From contig NZ_NQLA01000002.1 of NCBI RefSeq assembly GCF_002252705.1, positions 62,001-126,000 of the forward strand: 64,000 nt of DNA. Direction: 5' to 3'. Of this stretch, positions 25,511 through 36,341 are shown one piece after another. Each line of letters begins with the position of its first letter. The first letter of the stretch is position 1. The position numbers and the translations under genes are program-made. The notes under the pieces are model-generated. The model ran no database searches. It had not been told where the DNA came from and worked only from the letters and a program-made list of their open reading frames with translations. The DNA comes from Vulcanococcus limneticus LL (GTDB lineage Bacteria > Cyanobacteriota > Cyanobacteriia > PCC-6307 > Cyanobiaceae).

Positions 25511-26041
25511 ATGCCCCGTCCTTACCAACCCTCCCTGCTGCGGATCCTGCACGGCGCCGTGGGCCTGCTGGTGGCGGCGGCCTGGCTCAGCGGCCTGATC
25601 GTGTATTCCCTGCACGATGGGCGCTGGGGCCGTCTGCCCTGGCAGCCCGCCGGCAACTGGATCGACATCCACGGCAGCCTCGGGGTGCTGCTCTGGCCCC
25701 TGGCCATCGCGTTCGGGCTCTACGCCCTGACTCTGGGTCGCTCCCGCCTGCGCCAACCGGAGAACACCGCCGCGCTGCTGGGCCTGGCCCTGGCCGTGGG
25801 CAGTGGCAAGCTGATGGAAGAAGACTGGCTGCGGCAGGGCGATCTCAACCAGCTGGTGTATGTGATCCACCTGCTGGCCTGGCTGCTGATCGGCGCCGCA
25901 GTGGTCTGGCACGTCAAGGCCGTTCTGGGGCGGGGTGGCCTGCCGCTGGCCCGCTCGATGGTGAGCCTCCAGACGCGGTCCAACGATCTGCCCCACCACT
26001 GGCCTGGGCAGATTCGTCGGTTCTTCAGGCGTTCGGGCTGA
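25511..26041 (+). CDS. Cytochrome b/b6-type membrane protein
   Basis: The 176-residue protein has four hydrophobic segments with spaced histidines: SLLRILHGAVGLLVAAAWLS, WIDIHGSLGVLLWPLAIAFG, LVYVIHLLAWLLIGAAVVWH. These are the typical pattern of cytochrome b561/b6-like domains binding one or two b hemes. The ATG is 11 bp after the exporter gene stop with AAGGATCGCC upstream. It probably transfers electrons in the membrane; the partner is unknown. Its last 17 bases overlap the convergent isomerase-like gene. Confidence 0.85.
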   Translation: MPRPYQPSLLRILHGAVGLLVAAAWLSGLIVYSLHDGRWGRLPWQPAGNWIDIHGSLGVLLWPLAIAFGLYALTLGRSRLRQPENTAALLGLALAVGSGKLMEEDWLRQGDLNQLVYVIHLLAWLLIGAAVVWHVKAVLGRGGLPLARSMVSLQTRSNDLPHHWPGQIRRFFRRSG

Positions 26042-27656
26042 GCGGGCCAGCCGCCAGCCCCAGCTCCTCCAGGAGGGCCCGCTGCGCTGCCGCCGGCACG
26101 AAACTGTGGGCGGCCGCCGCGCCGCTCACGGCCACCGGCGGCACGCCGATGCCAGGGAAGGTGCCGGCACCGCACAGCACCAGGCCCTCGATCGGGGTGG
26201 TGCCGCCGGGGAACGGCCCCTGATCAGCGCCGAGGGCGGGGCCGTAGCTGCCCCGCTGCACCCGCAGATAGCGCTGGTGGGTTCTGGGGGTGCCGTGGAG
26301 TTCGACCACCACCCGATCGGCCAGATCCGGCACCAGCTCCTCCATCACTTGGCGGAAGATGCCGCAGCGCTCGGCCTTCAGGGCCTCGTAGGCCACCGTG
26401 CCGGGCTCCAGGTCGCGCCACAGATCCCAGGGCTCATTGGCGGGGGTGTAGCCGTGCAGCACCTGGTGCCCCGCGGGAGCCAGGGAGGGATCGAGCCGCG
26501 AAGGCATCGACAGCACCACCATGTTGCGCTCGGCGCTGATGCCGCGCTTCCAGTCGCCTACCCAGACATGGTGGATGGGCAGGTGCTCCAGCCCCTCGCC
26601 GCGCAGGCCCACGTGCCAGTGCAGGAAGCTGGCGCAGGCAGGGGTGGCCGCCCGCTGCTGGCGCCAGCGGGGCGGCAGGGCCTGCGCGCCGATCAGCTCC
26701 AGGGTGTCCCAGGGGCTGGCGTTGCTGACCACGCCGCGGCGCGCCCGCAGCACCCGGCCATCCTCCAGGCGCACGCCGCTGGCCCGTCCGTCCTCCACCA
26801 GGATCTCGGCCACGGCGCTGCGACAGCGAAGCTGGCCGCCGTGGCGCTCCAGACCCCGCACCAGGGCCGCCACCACGGCGGGGGACCCGCCCAGGGGGTA
26901 GTCGAGGCAGGCGCCGGGCTCGAACCACTCGCCGAACAGGGTGGCCATAGCGGCGGCGCTGGTCTGATCCAGGGGCAGACCCGAGATCAGGAAACTCAGC
27001 ATCTCCACCCAGTGGAGCAGGAAGGGGTCGCGCAGATGGCGCCGGGCCAGGGGGCCGAAGGCGCCGCCGAGGGCCGCCAGCCGCGGGGCATGGCGCAGCA
27101 GGGCGCTGGCCCCGCGCACCCCCAGCACCCCCGCCATCCCCAGGCCTGGCCGCAGGGCCAGCAGCGGCAGGGCGGCGGTGGCACGGCAGTAGGGCTCCAG
27201 GGCGTCCATGAAGGCGGCCCACTCGTTGGCCACCGCCTGCCCGCGCAGCTGGAGCACCACCTCCAGGAACGGCGCGGCGCCAACTCCCACCGTGAGCCGT
27301 CCCTCCGGTAACAGCAACCCCCAGTCGCTGTAGCTGACCACCGGCACGCTCTCGCCCACCGCCCGGAGCACCTGGGCCAGGGGGTTGGTGCTGGGCCAGC
27401 GGCCCAGGCCGCTCCAGAGTGAGGGGCCCGATTCGAACTGAAAGCCGCGGCGCTCGAAGCCGTGGGCCGCACCGCCGGCCCGGTCATGGGCCTCCAGCAC
27501 CAGCACCTCCAGTCCATGGCGGGCAGCCAGGGCGCCACAGCAGAGGCCGCCCAGGCCACTGCCGATCACCACCAGGTCGCAGTCGCAGGAGGCGGAACTC
27601 AACGGGAGAAGGGCGAGGCGCAACTCCGATGATGCAGGACCGGCACCGGGCCCCAT
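26025..27656 (-). CDS. NAD(P)/FAD-dependent oxidoreductase, CrtISO/phytoene desaturase-like
   Basis: The 543-residue protein opens with the Rossmann dinucleotide motif VVIGSGLGGLCCGALAARHG, followed by VLVLEAHDRAGGAAHGFERR. The C-terminal FAD motif reads GLVLCGAGTFPGIGVPPVAV. This is the layout of carotenoid isomerase CrtISO and related proteins, including carotenoid-modifying and lycopene-processing members. Substrate is probably a carotenoid but not proven. It has a long conserved helical middle (RDPFLLHWVEMLSFLISGL). The ATG at 27656 gives MGPGAGPASSELRLALLP; the 5' end is uncertain. Confidence 0.88.
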   Translation of the reverse strand: MGPGAGPASSELRLALLPLSSASCDCDLVVIGSGLGGLCCGALAARHGLEVLVLEAHDRAGGAAHGFERRGFQFESGPSLWSGLGRWPSTNPLAQVLRAVGESVPVVSYSDWGLLLPEGRLTVGVGAAPFLEVVLQLRGQAVANEWAAFMDALEPYCRATAALPLLALRPGLGMAGVLGVRGASALLRHAPRLAALGGAFGPLARRHLRDPFLLHWVEMLSFLISGLPLDQTSAAAMATLFGEWFEPGACLDYPLGGSPAVVAALVRGLERHGGQLRCRSAVAEILVEDGRASGVRLEDGRVLRARRGVVSNASPWDTLELIGAQALPPRWRQQRAATPACASFLHWHVGLRGEGLEHLPIHHVWVGDWKRGISAERNMVVLSMPSRLDPSLAPAGHQVLHGYTPANEPWDLWRDLEPGTVAYEALKAERCGIFRQVMEELVPDLADRVVVELHGTPRTHQRYLRVQRGSYGPALGADQGPFPGGTTPIEGLVLCGAGTFPGIGVPPVAVSGAAAAHSFVPAAAQRALLEELGLAAGPLSPNA

Positions 27657-27795
27657 TGCCCGAAGCTGCCGACTCAGGTAAAAACAGACCAACTTATCCC
27701 CCCACCCCGTTGGTCCGTTCAGGCTCCCCGCGCCAGCTCCGATCGGCCGATCGGAACCGCCGGGCGTCCGGCGCACCCCGACAGCGCTACCGCTG

Positions 27796-29334
27796 ATGGC
27801 TCCCCACCAGCGAGGCGTCAGCGGACGATCGACTGCCGCACCCGCCCCATCCGGCGGGGTTCAGCCCTCCACTCCAATCCGACTGCTGCGGGGGCTGTGG
27901 CGGCGGATCACCCAGCCGACAGCGGTGCTGGGTCTGCTGATTCTCAGCCTGCTGGCCCTGCCCTTCGCCATGGCCTCCACCCTCTCGGGGGCCATGGCCG
28001 CCCAGATGGAGGTGCAGGCCGATGAGATCTCCACCCTGGCCAGCAGCATCCGCAGCTACTACGCCGACAACATCATCTCCCGTCTGCAGGCCTCAGGCGG
28101 GCAGGCGGTGTTCTCCGAGAATTACCACCAGATCCCGGGCGGCATTCCAATCCCGGCCACCCTGGCCATCGAGCTTGGCGACCTGTTCGACAGCGCCAAT
28201 GCCGATCGCCGCATCTCCTACAGCTTCATCTCCGACTACCCCTTCGCCAAGCGGGTGAGCCCTCCCCTCGATGGCTTTGAGATGGAGGCGATCAAGGCCT
28301 TTCGCTCCAACCCGGAGCTCGATCGCTACACCAGGCTGAAGCAGAGCTGGCTCGGGCAACCCTCCTTCCGGGTGGCCACGCCGGTGCTGATGCGCAAGGC
28401 CTGTGTCAGCTGCCACAACGTCCACCCCGATTCCCCCAAGCGCGACTGGAAGGTCGGCGACGTCCGCGGCATCCAGGAGGTGACGGTGCGGGGGCTGGAT
28501 ATCAAGGGCCTGGGCCGCTTCGGCTACCTGATGGCCTACATGGGGCTGGTGGGGCTGGTGTCGGTCGGGGCCGCGGCCGCCTTCCAGCGCCAGGCCAGTG
28601 CCCTCGAACGCATCAACCGCCGCCTGCAGGACTCCAATGAACGGGAGAGCGAGATGGGCGACCAGCTTCGCTCCCAGGTGGAGGAACTGCGGCTGCTGAG
28701 CGCGGTGGCCGAACATGCCACCTTCGGCGTTTCGATCGCCGACATGCGGCAGGATGACTACCCTCTGATCTACGTCAACGAGGCCTTCAGCCACATCACG
28801 GGCTATCCGCGTGACAAGGCCACCGGCTTCAACTGCCGCTTCCTGCGCGGTCCGGACACCGATCCCCAGGTGGTGGCCGCCATCATCTCGGCAATCCGCG
28901 AAGGCAAGCCCTTCCACGGTGAACTGGTCAACTACCGCATGGACGGGACCCGGTTCTGGAACCGCCTGACCCTCTACCCGGTGGGCGGCAGCACCGGCAA
29001 ACCCGACTTTTACGTGGGCAACCAGATGGATGTGACGGCGCTGCACAGCGCCCGCGAGCTGAACCTGGACCAACTGATCCAGCTCGGCGCGCCAACTGCC
29101 GCTGCCCAGGGCAGCCTCGACGAGCTGCTCGCCCACCAGTCAGCCCTGCAGACCTCCCTCAGGAGCCAGGGTCTGCTCACGGTCGAACTGGAGACGTTCT
29201 TCGCCGCGGAGCGCCGCACCCTGGAGACACTCCAGGCCCGGTTGCAGACCACCCGCAACGTGATCCAGCAGATCCGTCCGGAGCAGCATCCGCCAGGGAG
29301 AGGCGTCTCCAACCAGGAGGAGCGGCTCCCATGA
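27796..29334 (+). CDS. Membrane sensor with c-type heme domain and LOV photoreceptor domain
   Basis: The 512-residue protein has a first helix (about 41-61), an extracytoplasmic domain of about 180 residues of the DUF3365 / Tll0287-like c-heme family with the heme motif CVSCH (Cys203, Cys206, His207), a second helix (about 243-264), a short helical linker, then a LOV domain (about 301-415). The LOV domain has GFNCRFLRG with the flavin-adduct Cys347, the flavin-contacting NYRMDGTRFWNRL and YVGNQMDV with Gln410. Its Gln-to-Arg change after NCRFL is tolerated in other LOV proteins. Helices follow to the C-terminus, without an output domain. The stop overlaps the next gene, a diguanylate cyclase. 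It is inferred to sense blue light inside and a heme signal outside. Confidence 0.92.
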   Translation: MAPHQRGVSGRSTAAPAPSGGVQPSTPIRLLRGLWRRITQPTAVLGLLILSLLALPFAMASTLSGAMAAQMEVQADEISTLASSIRSYYADNIISRLQASGGQAVFSENYHQIPGGIPIPATLAIELGDLFDSANADRRISYSFISDYPFAKRVSPPLDGFEMEAIKAFRSNPELDRYTRLKQSWLGQPSFRVATPVLMRKACVSCHNVHPDSPKRDWKVGDVRGIQEVTVRGLDIKGLGRFGYLMAYMGLVGLVSVGAAAAFQRQASALERINRRLQDSNERESEMGDQLRSQVEELRLLSAVAEHATFGVSIADMRQDDYPLIYVNEAFSHITGYPRDKATGFNCRFLRGPDTDPQVVAAIISAIREGKPFHGELVNYRMDGTRFWNRLTLYPVGGSTGKPDFYVGNQMDVTALHSARELNLDQLIQLGAPTAAAQGSLDELLAHQSALQTSLRSQGLLTVELETFFAAERRTLETLQARLQTTRNVIQQIRPEQHPPGRGVSNQEERLP

Positions 29335-30719
29335 TCAAGCCACCCAGCCCGGGGCATGCGCTGCGCACTGACCTAGCCCGCGAGTCCAACGAACGGGTGG
29401 TGGAGATCCTTGTGCAATGGGGGCTGGTCTGCGTGGGGGTGCTGGCACTGCTGGCGGCCGGTCTGGGGGTGGTGGCGGCCAATCGCGATGCCCAGCACCA
29501 GAGCGAGGAATTCCGGTCCCTGGCCTCGGCGCTGGTGGAGTCCAAAGCCAGTCCAGAGGATCGCCAGCGCATCCTGCTCAGCTACCAGAACAGCCGATTT
29601 GAAGACGACCGGGAGGGGATCCTCTCGCTGCTGCTCGTCGATGAGGCGGGGCGCATCGCCCTGAGCAGCCGCCCGAATTGGCTTGGCCGCCCCCTGGAGC
29701 CCTCACTGCTGAACGGCTCAGGTGCCCGTAACCCCGAGCTGCTCAGCATCGCCAGCTGCCTGGAGCGCCAGAGCAGCGATCCCAGCAAGTGTTTCGTCGC
29801 CAGGCAGGGCCGCTACCTGCCCTGGACCAAGACGCTCACCGTGGCCCATCCCTTCTCTATCTACGACCGGCGGGCCGGGCTGAAGCCCCGCCACTACCTG
29901 CTGGTGGTGAGCTTCGATCCGGGAACGTTCACCGCCAGCCTGCTAGCGGAAGTGAGCCTGGCGGTGCTGGCCTCCACTCTGCTGGTAGTGGTTCTGGTGA
30001 CGTTGCTGGGGCACCAGCTGCAGCGCGGCCTGCTGCCCAATCTGCGCCAGTTCGCCGAGACCGATGGCCTGACGGGCCTGATGAACCGCTCGGCCTTCAT
30101 GGACCTGGCCGTCCAGATGCTCGCCCAGGGGCAGCGCCAGAACCTGCCCTATGTGCTCGGCGTCATTGACATCGACCACTTCAAGGCGATCAACGACGGC
30201 CATGGCCATGTCTGCGGCGATGAGGTGCTGCAGAAACTCGCGCGTGTGCTGGAGGGCAGCCTGCGCGATAACGACCTGGTGACCCGGCTCGGCGGAGAGG
30301 AATTCGCCGTGCTGCTGCAGTGCACGACGGCCCGGGGTGAAACGCTGATGGAGCGGCTGCGCAACCAGGTGGAGGTCTGTCGGCTGAGCTTTGAGGGCAG
30401 GCCGCTGAGGGCCACGGTGAGCCTCGGCGGCGCCTGCACCGAGCAGCTGGGCTACAACCTCGACTACCTCTATTCCGCCGCCGACAGCGCCCTTTACCGG
30501 GCCAAGCGGGAGGGGCGCAACCGGGTGCACTGGGCGAACACCAGGCGCGAGCCGGTGGCGCGGGATGGTTGGTCACCCGGGGAGGCCTGGCGCCAGACAT
30601 TTCAGAACGCCAGACCGGGACCAGGCGCAGGACCAGCTGGCAATCCGGTCCCCGGCGACGGCCATGGCGCCGTCCCGTCCCCCATAACTGCGCCAGAGCC
30701 CCCGAGGCCGCAGCCGTGA
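29331..30719 (+). CDS. Membrane diguanylate cyclase (GGDEF)
   Basis: The 462-residue protein has a helix at about 31-50, an extracytoplasmic region of about 150 residues, a second helix at about 203-226, and a GGDEF domain beginning LRQFAETDGLTGLMNRSAF. The active-site loop is RLGGEEFAVLL (GGEEF at 321-325), and the inhibitory RxxD site is RDND at 312-315, so product feedback is expected. The domain makes c-di-GMP from two GTP. The sensor region has two cysteines and no recognised fold. A Pro/Gly-rich tail of about 60 residues follows the catalytic domain. Start and stop overlap the neighbouring genes as ATGA and GTGA, so it is coupled to both. Confidence 0.94.
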   Translation: MIKPPSPGHALRTDLARESNERVVEILVQWGLVCVGVLALLAAGLGVVAANRDAQHQSEEFRSLASALVESKASPEDRQRILLSYQNSRFEDDREGILSLLLVDEAGRIALSSRPNWLGRPLEPSLLNGSGARNPELLSIASCLERQSSDPSKCFVARQGRYLPWTKTLTVAHPFSIYDRRAGLKPRHYLLVVSFDPGTFTASLLAEVSLAVLASTLLVVVLVTLLGHQLQRGLLPNLRQFAETDGLTGLMNRSAFMDLAVQMLAQGQRQNLPYVLGVIDIDHFKAINDGHGHVCGDEVLQKLARVLEGSLRDNDLVTRLGGEEFAVLLQCTTARGETLMERLRNQVEVCRLSFEGRPLRATVSLGGACTEQLGYNLDYLYSAADSALYRAKREGRNRVHWANTRREPVARDGWSPGEAWRQTFQNARPGPGAGPAGNPVPGDGHGAVPSPITAPEPPRPQP

Positions 30720-32308
30720 TCCCCGCACCGCACCCTGAGGACGGGGCCGATCGAACCGCCCCAGACCAGGAGCAGCCATCGAAGGTCCCTGGCCCCAAGC
30801 CGAATCAAGCCGGGGCAACCGACTCCCTGGCCCTTCCTGGCCCCTGGCCGGGCTCCGCCGTGGGCCAGCCCCCGCCGAGCAGGGCGGATCGGCCCGGCCC
30901 CGCCGAGCCTCACCAGCGGGGCTCCCTGGATTCCCTGCTCAGCCGCAGTCGCTTCACGCAGCAGCTCGCCGAGCTGGTGGGAGCCGAGGCCGAGGGGCAC
31001 TTCGCAGTCATGCGCTGCCGCTTCAAGGAATACGAACGTGTGAGCGCCACCCTGGGCGGCAAGGCCGCCGAGGCCCTGATCGACGAGGGGGCGAGGCGGC
31101 TCTTGAACACGATCCCGCGTTCGGCCTCCGCAGCCCGCTTGTCGGACTCCGACCTGATCACGGTGATTCCGGAGCTGATCGAAGCACCGAGGATTTCCTC
31201 CATCGCCCAGCGTCTGATCGATCTCTGCGCGGTGCCCTACCGGATCGACGACCAGCGCCGGCCATTGAACGTGGCCATCGGCATCGTGATCAGCCGCGGC
31301 AACTACGCGGACCTGGAGGCGATCCTCTCGGACGCGAGCATGGCCCAGCGGATCGCCAGCCGGCACAACCAGAGCCAGTACCGCTTCATCGACCTGGAGA
31401 CCCGCAACCAGGCCCGCCGCAGCTACGAGCTTGAGGCCGACTTCCGCGAGGCTCTGCAGCAGGGCCTCTTCCTGCCCTTCTTCCAGCCGATCGCGGAGCT
31501 GCGCAGCGGCGAGCCGGTGGGTTTTGAGGTGCTGGCGCGCTGGCCGCGCCCGGACGGCAGCTTCGTGACACCGGATCGCTTCCTGCCGATCGCCCGGGAG
31601 ACCGCCCTCACCGGCGAGCTGGATCTGCAGATCATTGAGAAGGCCCTGCTGGCGGTAGGCGATCTGGCCCGGGAGGTGCCCTGGCGCTCGATGCTGCTCA
31701 GCGTGAACGTCTCGGCCAACCTGCTTGAGGACAGCGGCCTGCGCGAGCGGCTGCTCGAGCTGATCGTGGAATCACCCCTGCCCCCGGGCTGGTGGCTGCA
31801 GGTGGAGCTGATCGAGGAGGCCCTGCAGGACACCAGCTCCGCCTTCGACACCTTTCTGGCGCGGCTAAGCGAACTGAAGGTGACGATCGCGATCGACGAC
31901 TTCGGCACCGGTTATTCCTCCCTGGCCAGGCTCCACAGCCTGCCGATCGACAGCTTCAAGATCGACAAGAGCTTCGTCGACAAGATCGACGACACCGAGG
32001 CCTCCAGCAAGAAGCTGCTGCTGACCATGGGCGCCCTGGCCTCGGACCTCAGCCTCAGCTCCACCGTCGAGGGGGTGGAGACCGAAGCCCAGCGCCAGTG
32101 GCTGCTGCAGAGCGGCTTCCGTACCAGCCAGGGCTACCTGTTCGGCCGGCCCCTGCCCCTGGATGAGGCGGTGGTGGAGCTGCGCCGCCACAACCTGCGA
32201 CCGCCCGCCATCGCCGCGGAGCTGGACGACGAGGCCCAAAAGGACGACGCCCCCCGTCTGGGACTGCGCCAGCGCCTGCGGCGGCGGCTGCGCTGGCTGC
32301 TGGGCTGA
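30716..32308 (+). CDS. EAL-domain c-di-GMP phosphodiesterase with degenerate GGDEF
   Basis: The 530-residue protein has no membrane helix. A Pro-rich N-terminus leads to a degenerate GGDEF domain (about 70-230), where the active loop is RLSDSDLITV instead of GGDEF. The EAL domain (about 245-490) keeps the catalytic set: EVLARW (Glu271), NVSANLL (Asn331), ELIE (Glu364), DDFGTGYSSLARL (Asp394, Asp395), FKIDKSF (Lys415), VEGVE (Glu452) and SQGYLFGRP (Gln472). It should hydrolyse c-di-GMP to pGpG; the dead GGDEF may bind GTP and regulate. GTG was taken as start because it overlaps the upstream stop (GTGA). A basic C-terminal tail ends the protein. Confidence 0.93.
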   Translation: MIPAPHPEDGADRTAPDQEQPSKVPGPKPNQAGATDSLALPGPWPGSAVGQPPPSRADRPGPAEPHQRGSLDSLLSRSRFTQQLAELVGAEAEGHFAVMRCRFKEYERVSATLGGKAAEALIDEGARRLLNTIPRSASAARLSDSDLITVIPELIEAPRISSIAQRLIDLCAVPYRIDDQRRPLNVAIGIVISRGNYADLEAILSDASMAQRIASRHNQSQYRFIDLETRNQARRSYELEADFREALQQGLFLPFFQPIAELRSGEPVGFEVLARWPRPDGSFVTPDRFLPIARETALTGELDLQIIEKALLAVGDLAREVPWRSMLLSVNVSANLLEDSGLRERLLELIVESPLPPGWWLQVELIEEALQDTSSAFDTFLARLSELKVTIAIDDFGTGYSSLARLHSLPIDSFKIDKSFVDKIDDTEASSKKLLLTMGALASDLSLSSTVEGVETEAQRQWLLQSGFRTSQGYLFGRPLPLDEAVVELRRHNLRPPAIAAELDDEAQKDDAPRLGLRQRLRRRLRWLLG

Positions 32309-35687: not shown

Positions 35688-36341
35688 TCAGCTGGCCGCC
35701 AGCGGCGCCGACTCCACCAGCTCCGGCGCCAGGCGCAGGCCGCCCTGGCCAGCCGGCACCACCAGCAGCTGGGCCTGGCGAATACGCGACAGCAGCCGGG
35801 TGGTGGTGACGCGGGTGGCGCCGATCAGCTCGCCGATGCGCTCATGGGTGAGGCGGAAGGGCAGGTCGCACCAGGGGCCGCAGCGGCGACCCAGGCGCCG
35901 CACCAGCAGGGCCAGCAGGGCATGGAGGCGCTGCTCAGCGCTGCCCAGGTGGCGGATGCGCAGCAGCTGCAGGGTCCACTCGTTCACTGGGTCGAAGCCG
36001 TCGCCGCGGCCAGGTTCGCCATCGCAGCGGAACTGGAGGGGCGTGAGGGCCTCCACGCAGATGCCCTCGCTGCAGAGGCGATCGGTGCGCAGCTGATCTC
36101 CCTTCTGAAGAAAGGCGAGGGTCATGCCGGCGGTCTCCTCGCAGGGGCAGTAGACGCGGGCCACCCCCTCCAGCACCTCGATGCAACCGCCCTCGCCGCG
36201 CAGGCCGGGATCGAGCAGCACGCTCTGGCCGATGGGAACCCGCACGGGTAGGGCGCAGGGGGAGGCGACAGCAGCCGTGGCGGCACCAGCAGTGGCGGCA
36301 GCGGAGGAGGCGGCAGGGGAGGAGGGGAAGCGGAGACCCAT
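35688..36341 (-). CDS. Crp/Fnr-family regulator next to idiA
   Basis: The 217-residue protein has an N-terminal cyclic-nucleotide-like jelly roll (VPIGQSVLLDPGLRGEGG, then CPCEETAGMTLAFLQKGDQ) and a C-terminal helix-turn-helix LTHERIGELIGATRVTTTRL. Several Cys in the sensor region may matter. It has its own promoter carrying two Fur-like boxes (36369-36423), so it is probably iron-responsive. Marine picocyanobacteria are known to carry an iron-stress-induced Crp regulator adjacent to idiA (general knowledge). Targets are not visible here. Confidence 0.89.
   Translation of the reverse strand: MGLRFPSSPAASSAAATAGAATAAVASPCALPVRVPIGQSVLLDPGLRGEGGCIEVLEGVARVYCPCEETAGMTLAFLQKGDQLRTDRLCSEGICVEALTPLQFRCDGEPGRGDGFDPVNEWTLQLLRIRHLGSAEQRLHALLALLVRRLGRRCGPWCDLPFRLTHERIGELIGATRVTTTRLLSRIRQAQLLVVPAGQGGLRLAPELVESAPLAAS

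What the first reader, a model, noticed from the sequence alone, without database searches (positions are those of the whole stretch)
27796..32308. A c-heme + LOV sensor coupled to a diguanylate cyclase and an EAL phosphodiesterase in one operon
Three genes overlap start-to-stop (ATGA, GTGA), so they are translated as a unit. The first has the extracytoplasmic DUF3365/Tll0287-like heme domain (CVSCH) and a cytoplasmic LOV domain with its adduct Cys (GFNCRFLRG), but no output domain. The second is a membrane GGEEF cyclase with an inhibitory RDND site; the third is an EAL phosphodiesterase with all catalytic residues and a dead GGDEF. The set could be a self-contained circuit where light and an external heme-linked signal adjust c-di-GMP. 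I know of no described system with this exact combination.
Basis: partly seen in the sequence, partly recalled or inferred. Interest (0 to 1): 0.85.

Follow-up and report, generated by a model that had tools for sequence, protein, structure and literature searches.

The report
Heme-and-light-sensor c-di-GMP gene trio
A small cyanobacterium carries three joined genes that look like a switch combining a blue-light sensor and an external heme sensor with enzymes that make and break the signal molecule c-di-GMP, and sister copies of the trio in related species sit beside or inside the genes for taking up carbon dioxide, hinting at an unexpected link between this signal and carbon supply.

Summary
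In detail: three overlapping genes (27796-32308) encode a heme-c Cache (Tll0287/DUF3365) plus LOV protein without output, a membrane GGEEF cyclase with RxxD site, and a degenerate-GGDEF/EAL protein with its catalytic residues. I found 18 such sensor loci in 15 of 400 genomes sampled from the family. At 15 of 18 all three genes follow each other on one contig; two more are cut or split by contig ends but agree; one (L036) lacks gene 3. So the genes are not split apart as a rule. CxxCH and the LOV residues are kept in 18 of 18. The heme domain has no cysteine besides CxxCH in 17 of 18, which by a 2026 preprint points to the NO-sensing rather than the redox type. Unexpected: at 10 of 17 testable loci the trio lies within about 16 kb of CO2-concentrating genes, at 3 of them inside the ndhF3/ndhD3-cupA-cupS row. 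The window's copy and the five others of its clade (0 of 6) do not. Best reading: a two-input (light plus heme ligand) adaptor acting on a cyclase and a phosphodiesterase. Coupling, ligand and target are untested. New variant of a known kind.

The parts
27796..29334 (+). gene 1: sensor/adaptor, TM - heme-c Cache - TM - helix - LOV - helical tail, 512 aa, no output domain
28000..28488 (+). Tll0287-like (DUF3365, sCache_heme) domain, residues 69-231, predicted extracytoplasmic
   Evidence: Pfam PF11845 77.1 bits; residues 65-235 are 61-92% identical to the window in 17 of 17 other loci
28402..28416 (+). CVSCH heme-c attachment motif, residues 203-207
   Evidence: 18 of 18 loci keep C, C and H
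28693..29055 (+). LOV domain, about residues 300-420
   Evidence: N346, C347, R348, N379, N389, Q410 in 18 of 18
28834..28836 (+). LOV adduct cysteine C347 (GFNCRFLRG)
   Evidence: 18 of 18
29047..29286 (+). C-terminal helical tail, residues 418-497; poorly conserved in sequence, absent in L036, shortened in L067
   Evidence: model pLDDT 82-92 in blocks 431-490
29331..30719 (+). gene 2: membrane diguanylate cyclase, 462 aa
29541..29918 (+). extracytoplasmic domain of gene 2 (about residues 71-196), Cache-like order of helices and strands in the model; no Pfam match
   Evidence: the fold is my inference
29757..29792 (+). conserved extracytoplasmic cysteine pair C143/C154, possible disulfide
   Evidence: 16 of 16 readable gene-2 copies
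30264..30275 (+). RDND inhibitory (I) site
   Evidence: D kept in 16 and R in 13 of 16 readable copies
30291..30305 (+). GGEEF active-site motif
   Evidence: 16 of 16 readable copies
30716..32308 (+). gene 3: degenerate GGDEF + EAL phosphodiesterase, 530 aa, GTG start
30716..30931 (+). proline-rich N-terminus where longer relatives carry a GAF domain
30932..31369 (+). degenerate GGDEF domain (SDSDL in place of GGDEF), residues 73-218
31436..32152 (+). EAL domain, residues 241-479
   Evidence: of 12 positions known to me as catalytic or metal-binding (recalled), 11 are kept in 15 of 15 full copies and E455 in 13 of 15 (D in 2)

Best explanation
The three genes make one signalling unit. Gene 1 is a two-input adaptor in the membrane: its outer arm is a Cache domain with covalent heme c that most likely binds a small gas such as NO (an exchangeable sixth site, because no axial cysteine exists), and its inner arm is a blue-light LOV domain. 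It has no enzyme of its own and acts by contact: through the membrane part on the cyclase (gene 2) and through the LOV domain with its C-terminal helices on the EAL phosphodiesterase (gene 3), so that light and heme state set the local balance of c-di-GMP. The sister trios suggest that the older job was tied to inorganic-carbon supply; the window's branch is not in that neighbourhood and may have another target. Shown: genes, domains, residues, conservation of the trio, linkage of sister trios. Inferred: heme and flavin binding, NO as ligand, contact between the proteins, sign of the response, target.
For: Trio in order on one contig at 15 of 18 sensor loci; L038 has gene 3 cut by the contig end (only its N-terminal part seen); in G322 gene 1 (L067) ends one contig and genes 2 and 3 fill another (L104); L036 is the exception. 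Heme motif and LOV residues 18 of 18, GGEEF 16 of 16 readable, EAL residues in 15 of 15 full copies. No cysteine but CxxCH in the outer domain in 17 of 18; the preprint PMC12889525 (Results read) reports NO-sensor behaviour for the one tested signalling-type domain, which lacks the axial cysteine. The one locus without the gene-3 relative, L036, also lacks the tail of gene 1. PapB-PapA shows an output-less blue-light sensor acting on a separate EAL protein through C-terminal helices (passage in PMC8846402).
Against: No experiment or complex prediction shows contact among the three proteins. The tail is poorly conserved (16-28% identity to the window outside L031; 1 invariant column of 80 even without L036 and L067, against 77 of 171 in the heme part), weak for a docking surface; its loss together with gene 3 is a single case, and L067, whose genome keeps gene 3, has a tail shortened by about 30 residues next to a contig end. 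The NO inference rests on one characterised domain in one preprint, from a distant bacterium. AlphaFold confidence for gene 1 is low overall (mean pLDDT 61.7), below 50 in the helix before the LOV domain. The profile match to solved Tll0287 is not significant (E 0.41). The window's copy is not beside CO2-concentrating genes: none of those sought in the 64 kb, cupA and sbtA on another contig.
Confidence: 0.55

Rival explanations
1. The heme arm is a redox sensor, not a gas sensor: it reports the electron supply in the periplasm or thylakoid lumen.
For: The tested stand-alone domain of the family behaves more like a redox protein (PMC12889525); sister trios sit among NDH-1 genes, whose work depends on photosynthetic electron flow; the cyclase has a conserved outer cysteine pair that could be redox-active.
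Confidence: 0.3
2. The genes are merely co-transcribed: the LOV/heme protein feeds another partner, and the cyclase and phosphodiesterase respond to their own domains.
For: Gene 2 has its own outer domain with a conserved cysteine pair and long gene-3 relatives have their own GAF domain; in L036 genes 1 and 2 live without the gene-3 relative.
Against: Gene 1, without any output domain, lies next to gene 2 at every locus where the contig reaches beyond it (17 of 17, one of them, L065, with a frame break in gene 2), through many changes of neighbourhood.
Confidence: 0.25
3. The link to CO2-concentrating genes is hitch-hiking: those gene groups are clustered and rearranged in this family and collect signalling genes, with no functional tie to the trio.
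For: Other cyclase genes also sit there: CHASE-PAS-GGDEF beside cupS in G108 and G282, ODP-GGDEF between sbtA and ndhF3 in the window's genome. The window clade is unlinked (0 of 6) and so is L071. The linked genomes are of one family, so the cases are not independent.
Against: The trio is found at several different places of the CO2 gene groups (between ndhF3 and ndhD3, after cupS, before ndhF3, beside sbtA, near bicA); of the listed GGDEF matches 7 of 15 trio rows against 2 of 135 others lie within 16 kb of cupA or sbtA (150 of 317 matches were listed, and the 16-kb limit was chosen after seeing the distances).
Confidence: 0.4

Closest known systems
SL2 of Synechococcus elongatus (LOV-GGDEF-EAL, blue-light phosphodiesterase; passages in PMC8846402 and PMC13001216)
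   Same: LOV control of a GGDEF/EAL phosphodiesterase in a cyanobacterium
   Different: one polypeptide; no heme domain, no separate cyclase; here the LOV domain is on a separate membrane protein
PapB-PapA of Rhodopseudomonas palustris (passage in PMC8846402)
   Same: blue-light sensor without output acting on a separate EAL protein
   Different: BLUF instead of LOV, no heme domain and no cyclase partner in the passage read
DgcO-PdeO (DosC-DosP) operon of E. coli (passage in PMC8846402)
   Same: heme-regulated cyclase and phosphodiesterase pair from one operon forming a complex
   Different: heme lies in the enzymes themselves, O2 ligand, no light sensor
sCache_heme (DUF3365/Tll0287) sensor family, PMC12889525 (abstract, Results, legends and search passages read)
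   Same: domain of gene 1 with CxxCH, signalling type without axial cysteine
   Different: the frequent fusions named there are HAMP, PAS, MCP signal, histidine kinase, GGDEF, EAL and class III cyclase domains; 'PAS' could hide LOV, but the text has no occurrence of the word LOV
H-NOX with a neighbouring c-di-GMP enzyme (NO control of c-di-GMP; references seen in PMC8846402, details recalled)
   Same: separate NO-type heme sensor encoded beside c-di-GMP enzymes
   Different: unrelated heme fold, no light domain (recalled)

Membership tests
Tll0287/DUF3365 (sCache_heme) | Pfam PF11845 above cut-off | tested here: met
   77.1 bits against 24.1
Tll0287/DUF3365 (sCache_heme) | CxxCH heme-c motif (99% of the family in PMC12889525) | tested here: met
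   18 of 18
Tll0287/DUF3365 (sCache_heme) | fold like solved Tll0287 (5B82) | tested here: inconclusive
   profile match to 5b82 only E 0.41; model of this part is uneven and the structure comparison was filled by LOV
redox-type Tll0287 (Cys/His ligation) | axial cysteine | tested here: not met
   no cysteine but CxxCH in the outer domain of the window protein and in 17 of 18 loci
NO-type sCache_heme | tight NO binding | not testable with these tools
   needs protein
LOV photoreceptor | adduct Cys and flavin-contact Asn, Asn, Gln | tested here: met
   18 of 18; contact residues named from recall
LOV photoreceptor | flavin binding and photocycle | not testable with these tools
   needs protein
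diguanylate cyclase | GG(D/E)EF and metal-binding residues | tested here: met
   16 of 16 readable copies
diguanylate cyclase | c-di-GMP synthesis | not testable with these tools
   needs protein
EAL phosphodiesterase | catalytic and metal-binding residues | tested here: met
   11 of 12 positions in 15 of 15 full copies, the twelfth E (13) or D (2); E in the window
EAL phosphodiesterase | c-di-GMP hydrolysis | not testable with these tools
   needs protein
SL2-type LOV-GGDEF-EAL protein | LOV, GGDEF and EAL on one chain | tested here: not met
   LOV is on gene 1, GGDEF/EAL on genes 2 and 3
PapB-PapA type | BLUF sensor domain | tested here: not met
   the domain is LOV; it may still work alike
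PapB-PapA type | complex of sensor and EAL protein | not testable with these tools
   needs protein or a complex prediction

The most novel reading that the evidence does not exclude
The trio family is a c-di-GMP switch for inorganic-carbon acquisition in picocyanobacteria: light (LOV) and an external heme ligand or redox state are read by one adaptor and turned into local c-di-GMP that adjusts the inducible CO2-uptake NDH-1 complex and bicarbonate transporters, a link for which my searches gave no describing paper; the window's branch is a relative outside this neighbourhood that lacks the GAF input.
Probability: 0.3. Interest if true: 0.85.

Novelty: new variant of a known kind. Interest (0 to 1): 0.62.

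Why it matters
Single-chain light- or gas-controlled c-di-GMP enzymes are well known; an output-less membrane protein that joins a heme-c outer sensor and a LOV inner sensor and is kept with both a cyclase and a phosphodiesterase was not described in the papers my searches found. If the sister loci mean what they suggest, c-di-GMP would join the other second messengers tied to carbon supply in cyanobacteria (cAMP and c-di-AMP, recalled), and this is directly testable because the genes lie inside the CO2-uptake gene row in some genomes.

Tried and rejected
Fusion in L031: an automatic 1030-aa ORF spans genes 1 and 2, but gene 1 lies in another frame there, so no fusion. Effector route through ComFB and SyCRP1, suggested by a passage of PMC13249358: ComFB (PF10719) has matches in 0 of 15 genomes while the control rings in 2 of 14 known genomes, so set aside; PilZ matches are present in 14 of 15. 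Riboswitch: Rfam at gathering scores finds only the tRNA in the window. PDB search with the heme domain alone found no convincing relative; with the profile only 5b82 at E 0.41. Fold of the outer domain of gene 2: Foldseek and VIA-align rows were filled by the GGDEF domain and Pfam gives no family; the Cache reading rests on the order of helices and strands only. The pattern-based scan of genome contigs found 3 relatives; the profile search of genomes found more. I first read the gene at 35688-36341 as ntcA by eye; NCBIfam gave no match at E 1e-20 and Pfam only Crp-family helix-turn-helix models, so it is a Crp-family regulator at most.

Limits of counts: the family search took 400 genomes drawn from a larger group and scored about 3 candidates per genome; the class search found 2 of 388, both in the same family, scoring at most 4 per genome, so misses are possible. 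L065 gene 2 has a frame break and was left out of the gene-2 residue counts. L038 was left out of the EAL counts and of the linkage count (3.2-kb contig). For the unlinked loci the flanks held are about 3.3-7.9 kb each side, in the window 28-32 kb, plus the comparison of contigs for cupA and sbtA. Start codons of several relatives are guesses. The first count of invariant tail columns (0 of 80) was forced by gaps of L036; without L036 and L067 it is 1 of 80. The association of trio and cupA (14 of 15 trio genomes, 113 of 400 in all, taking the two samples as the same 400; Fisher 1.3e-7) and the GGDEF comparison (Fisher 7e-7) ignore shared descent, and the 16-kb limit was set after seeing the distances; neither is a probability to lean on.
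Full report
What is there. The window lies in a cyanobacterial genome (G000, contig C8); the named relatives found by this locus are Synechococcus sp. GreenBA-s and two Cyanobium strains, FACHB-13342 and T1B-Tous. Three genes overlap by four bases each: 27796-29334, 29331-30719 and 30716-32308. Pfam gives Tll0287-like plus PAS_9 for the first, GGDEF for the second, EAL plus a weaker GGDEF for the third. Hydropathy peaks suggest two membrane spans each in the first two proteins (about residues 42-60 and 245-263; 32-50 and 208-226) and none in the third. The LOV nature of the PAS domain is clear by sequence (best PDB matches are LOV domains) and by the model (YtvA LOV, Z 18.8, rmsd 2.5, 127 aligned).

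Conservation. A profile of the sensor protein found full-length relatives in 15 of 400 genomes sampled from the family and in 2 of 388 sampled from the class, both in the family (few candidates per genome were scored). Genes 1, 2 and 3 follow each other on one strand at 15 loci (in L065 gene 2 has a frame break); at L038 the contig ends inside gene 3; in G322 one contig ends just after gene 1 (L067) and another carries genes 2 and 3 (L104); at L036 genes 1 and 2 are followed by a different, convergent gene with EAL, GGDEF and weak PAS matches.

Residues. CxxCH, the LOV cysteine and the flavin-contact residues are kept in 18 of 18; GGEEF and the metal residues in 16 of 16 readable cyclases, the arginine of the RxxD site in 13 of 16; 11 of 12 EAL positions in 15 of 15 full copies, the twelfth as E in 13 and D in 2; the GGDEF motif of the third protein is degenerate in 15 of 15. 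A pair of cysteines in the outer part of the cyclase is kept in 16 of 16 with a variable stretch between them, which looks like a disulfide; whether it is structural or redox-active is open.

The heme arm. A 2026 preprint (PMC12889525; abstract, Results, legends and search passages read) argues that DUF3365/Tll0287 domains are Cache domains with covalent heme c; of two proteins tested, a stand-alone one with an axial cysteine behaves like a redox protein and a signalling one without this cysteine binds NO tightly. In the window protein the only cysteines are the two of CxxCH and the LOV cysteine, and in 17 of 18 loci the outer domain has none but CxxCH (L067 has one more). So the redox-type ligation is excluded by sequence and the NO type is the better guess. 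The preprint lists PAS among frequent fusions, which could cover LOV, but does not contain the word LOV. Searches for 'LOV domain' with 'DUF3365' gave no paper, and with 'c-type heme' and 'GGDEF' one, on Pseudomonas aeruginosa PAS and Cache domains (listing seen only).

How it may signal. Gene 1 has no output, so it must act through partners. The model shows a long helix before the LOV domain (low confidence) and three helices after it, residues 414-497 (better confidence). PapB-PapA gives the precedent: an output-less blue-light sensor drives a separate EAL protein through C-terminal helices (passage in PMC8846402). The one locus without the gene-3 relative, L036, is also the one whose gene 1 stops right after the LOV domain. 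This fits a tail that docks the phosphodiesterase. Against it: it is one case, the tail is poorly conserved, and L067 has a shortened tail, though at a contig end. The link to the cyclase would then run through the membrane part. All of this is inference.

Evolution of gene 3. GAF is found in 3 of 6 scanned gene-3 proteins at E up to 1 and in L037 clearly, not in the window or L062. Lengths are 530 aa in the window and L031, 584-591 in L062, L063 and L070, 650-696 in the other ten full copies (starts partly guessed); in the window a proline-rich stretch stands in the place of the GAF domain. Trees of genes 1 and 2 put the window with L031, L062, L063, L070 and L036 (support 0.984 and 1.000; for gene 3, without L036, 1.000).

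Sister trios and CO2 uptake. This was not expected. In L066, L068 and L072 the trio sits, on the same strand, between ndhF3 and ndhD3-cupA-cupS, the genes of the inducible CO2-uptake NDH-1 complex; in L037 and L067 it follows cupS; in L065 it precedes ndhF3; in L035 it lies between sbtA-sbtB with carboxysome genes and ndhF3-ndhD3; in L064 it is beside sbtA-sbtB-csoS1-cbbL; in L073 bicA is about 6 kb and cupA about 12 kb away; in L069 bicA is about 3.5 kb downstream. Names were checked on examples: NdhF3 family, CO2 hydration protein, CsoS1, RuBisCO large subunit and BicA by NCBIfam, SbtA, P-II-like and fasciclin by Pfam; 'ndhD3', 'cupS' and 'sbtB' beyond these family names are my reading from order and recall. 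In the 19 such gene rows without an inserted trio that I took (of 113 genomes with a cupA match), ndhF3 and ndhD3 are 51-166 bases apart, against 4.9-5.2 kb in the three with the trio. In all, 10 of 17 testable loci are within about 16 kb of such genes. The six loci of the window's clade are not (0 of 6), nor is L071. Among listed GGDEF matches of the 15 genomes, 7 of 15 trio rows and 2 of 135 others lie within 16 kb of cupA or sbtA (150 of 317 matches were listed; an ODP-GGDEF gene in the window's own genome between sbtA and ndhF3, seen, is among the unlisted and would count among the others). The genomes are related, so this is not a count of independent events; in G005, where no trio was found, carboxysome genes, sbtAB, ndhF3-cupS and bicA lie together, so one old neighbourhood that later broke up may explain the different places. 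That the trio stayed with various pieces of it is still suggestive.

Literature on that link. In a 2023 review of second messengers and the carbon-concentrating mechanism the c-di-GMP passages speak of light, motility, aggregation and differentiation (PMC10117731, passages). A 2026 review of the mechanism names c-di-GMP twice, once in the text, through ComFB with SyCRP1, a regulator of some of these genes, and once in a reference (PMC13249358, passages); ComFB matches are absent from 15 of 15 genomes. A search for c-di-GMP, carbon concentrating mechanism, cyanobacteria and NDH-1 gave two papers, this review and one on synthetic biology; one for LOV domain, CO2 concentrating and c-di-GMP gave none.

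Verdict. The parts are of known kinds; the combination is a new variant. Light-plus-heme control of c-di-GMP is the best reading, with coupling unproven. The most interesting thread, control of carbon supply, belongs to the sister loci and can be carried over to the window's copy only with caution.

Noticed in passing
L086:710-2383 (G000 contig C1): In the window's own genome an ODP (beta-lactamase-like) plus GGDEF protein lies between sbtA and ndhF3; the ODP part may sense O2 or NO (recalled).
   Followed up: partly
L096:9782-12040 and L083:5670-7898: CHASE-PAS-GGDEF genes converge on cupS in G108 and G282; further cyclases beside CO2-uptake genes.
   Followed up: partly
L037:7066-7557, and just upstream of the trio in L065, L067, L073: A small secreted or lipoprotein-like gene (by eye) precedes the trio at 4 loci; no Pfam match for the three copies scanned; possible outer partner of the heme arm; not matched in the window.
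   Followed up: partly
L039:6085-7668 (G024): A Tll0287-like domain fused to a class III cyclase with an HNOBA-type linker, in the same genus.
   Followed up: partly
window 29757-29792: Conserved cysteine pair in the outer domain of the cyclase, 16 of 16 readable copies, variable loop between.
   Followed up: partly
G182:C1:2478089, G240:C23:21177, G016:C20:2432: PilZ (c-di-GMP receptor) matches within about 1.5-5.5 kb of trio loci.
   Followed up: no
L065 gene 2; L066 ndhF3 (two frames): Frame breaks that may be real or assembly errors.
   Followed up: no
window 26025-27776: A carotenoid isomerase/desaturase-family gene (best NCBIfam model carot_isom, 254 bits, below its cut-off of 587) diverges from the trio in the window and L031 and converges on it in L062 and L063.
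   Followed up: partly
window 35688-36341: A Crp-family regulator (Pfam HTH_Crp_2) 3.4 kb downstream of the trio; it resembles ntcA by eye but NCBIfam does not confirm it.
   Followed up: partly
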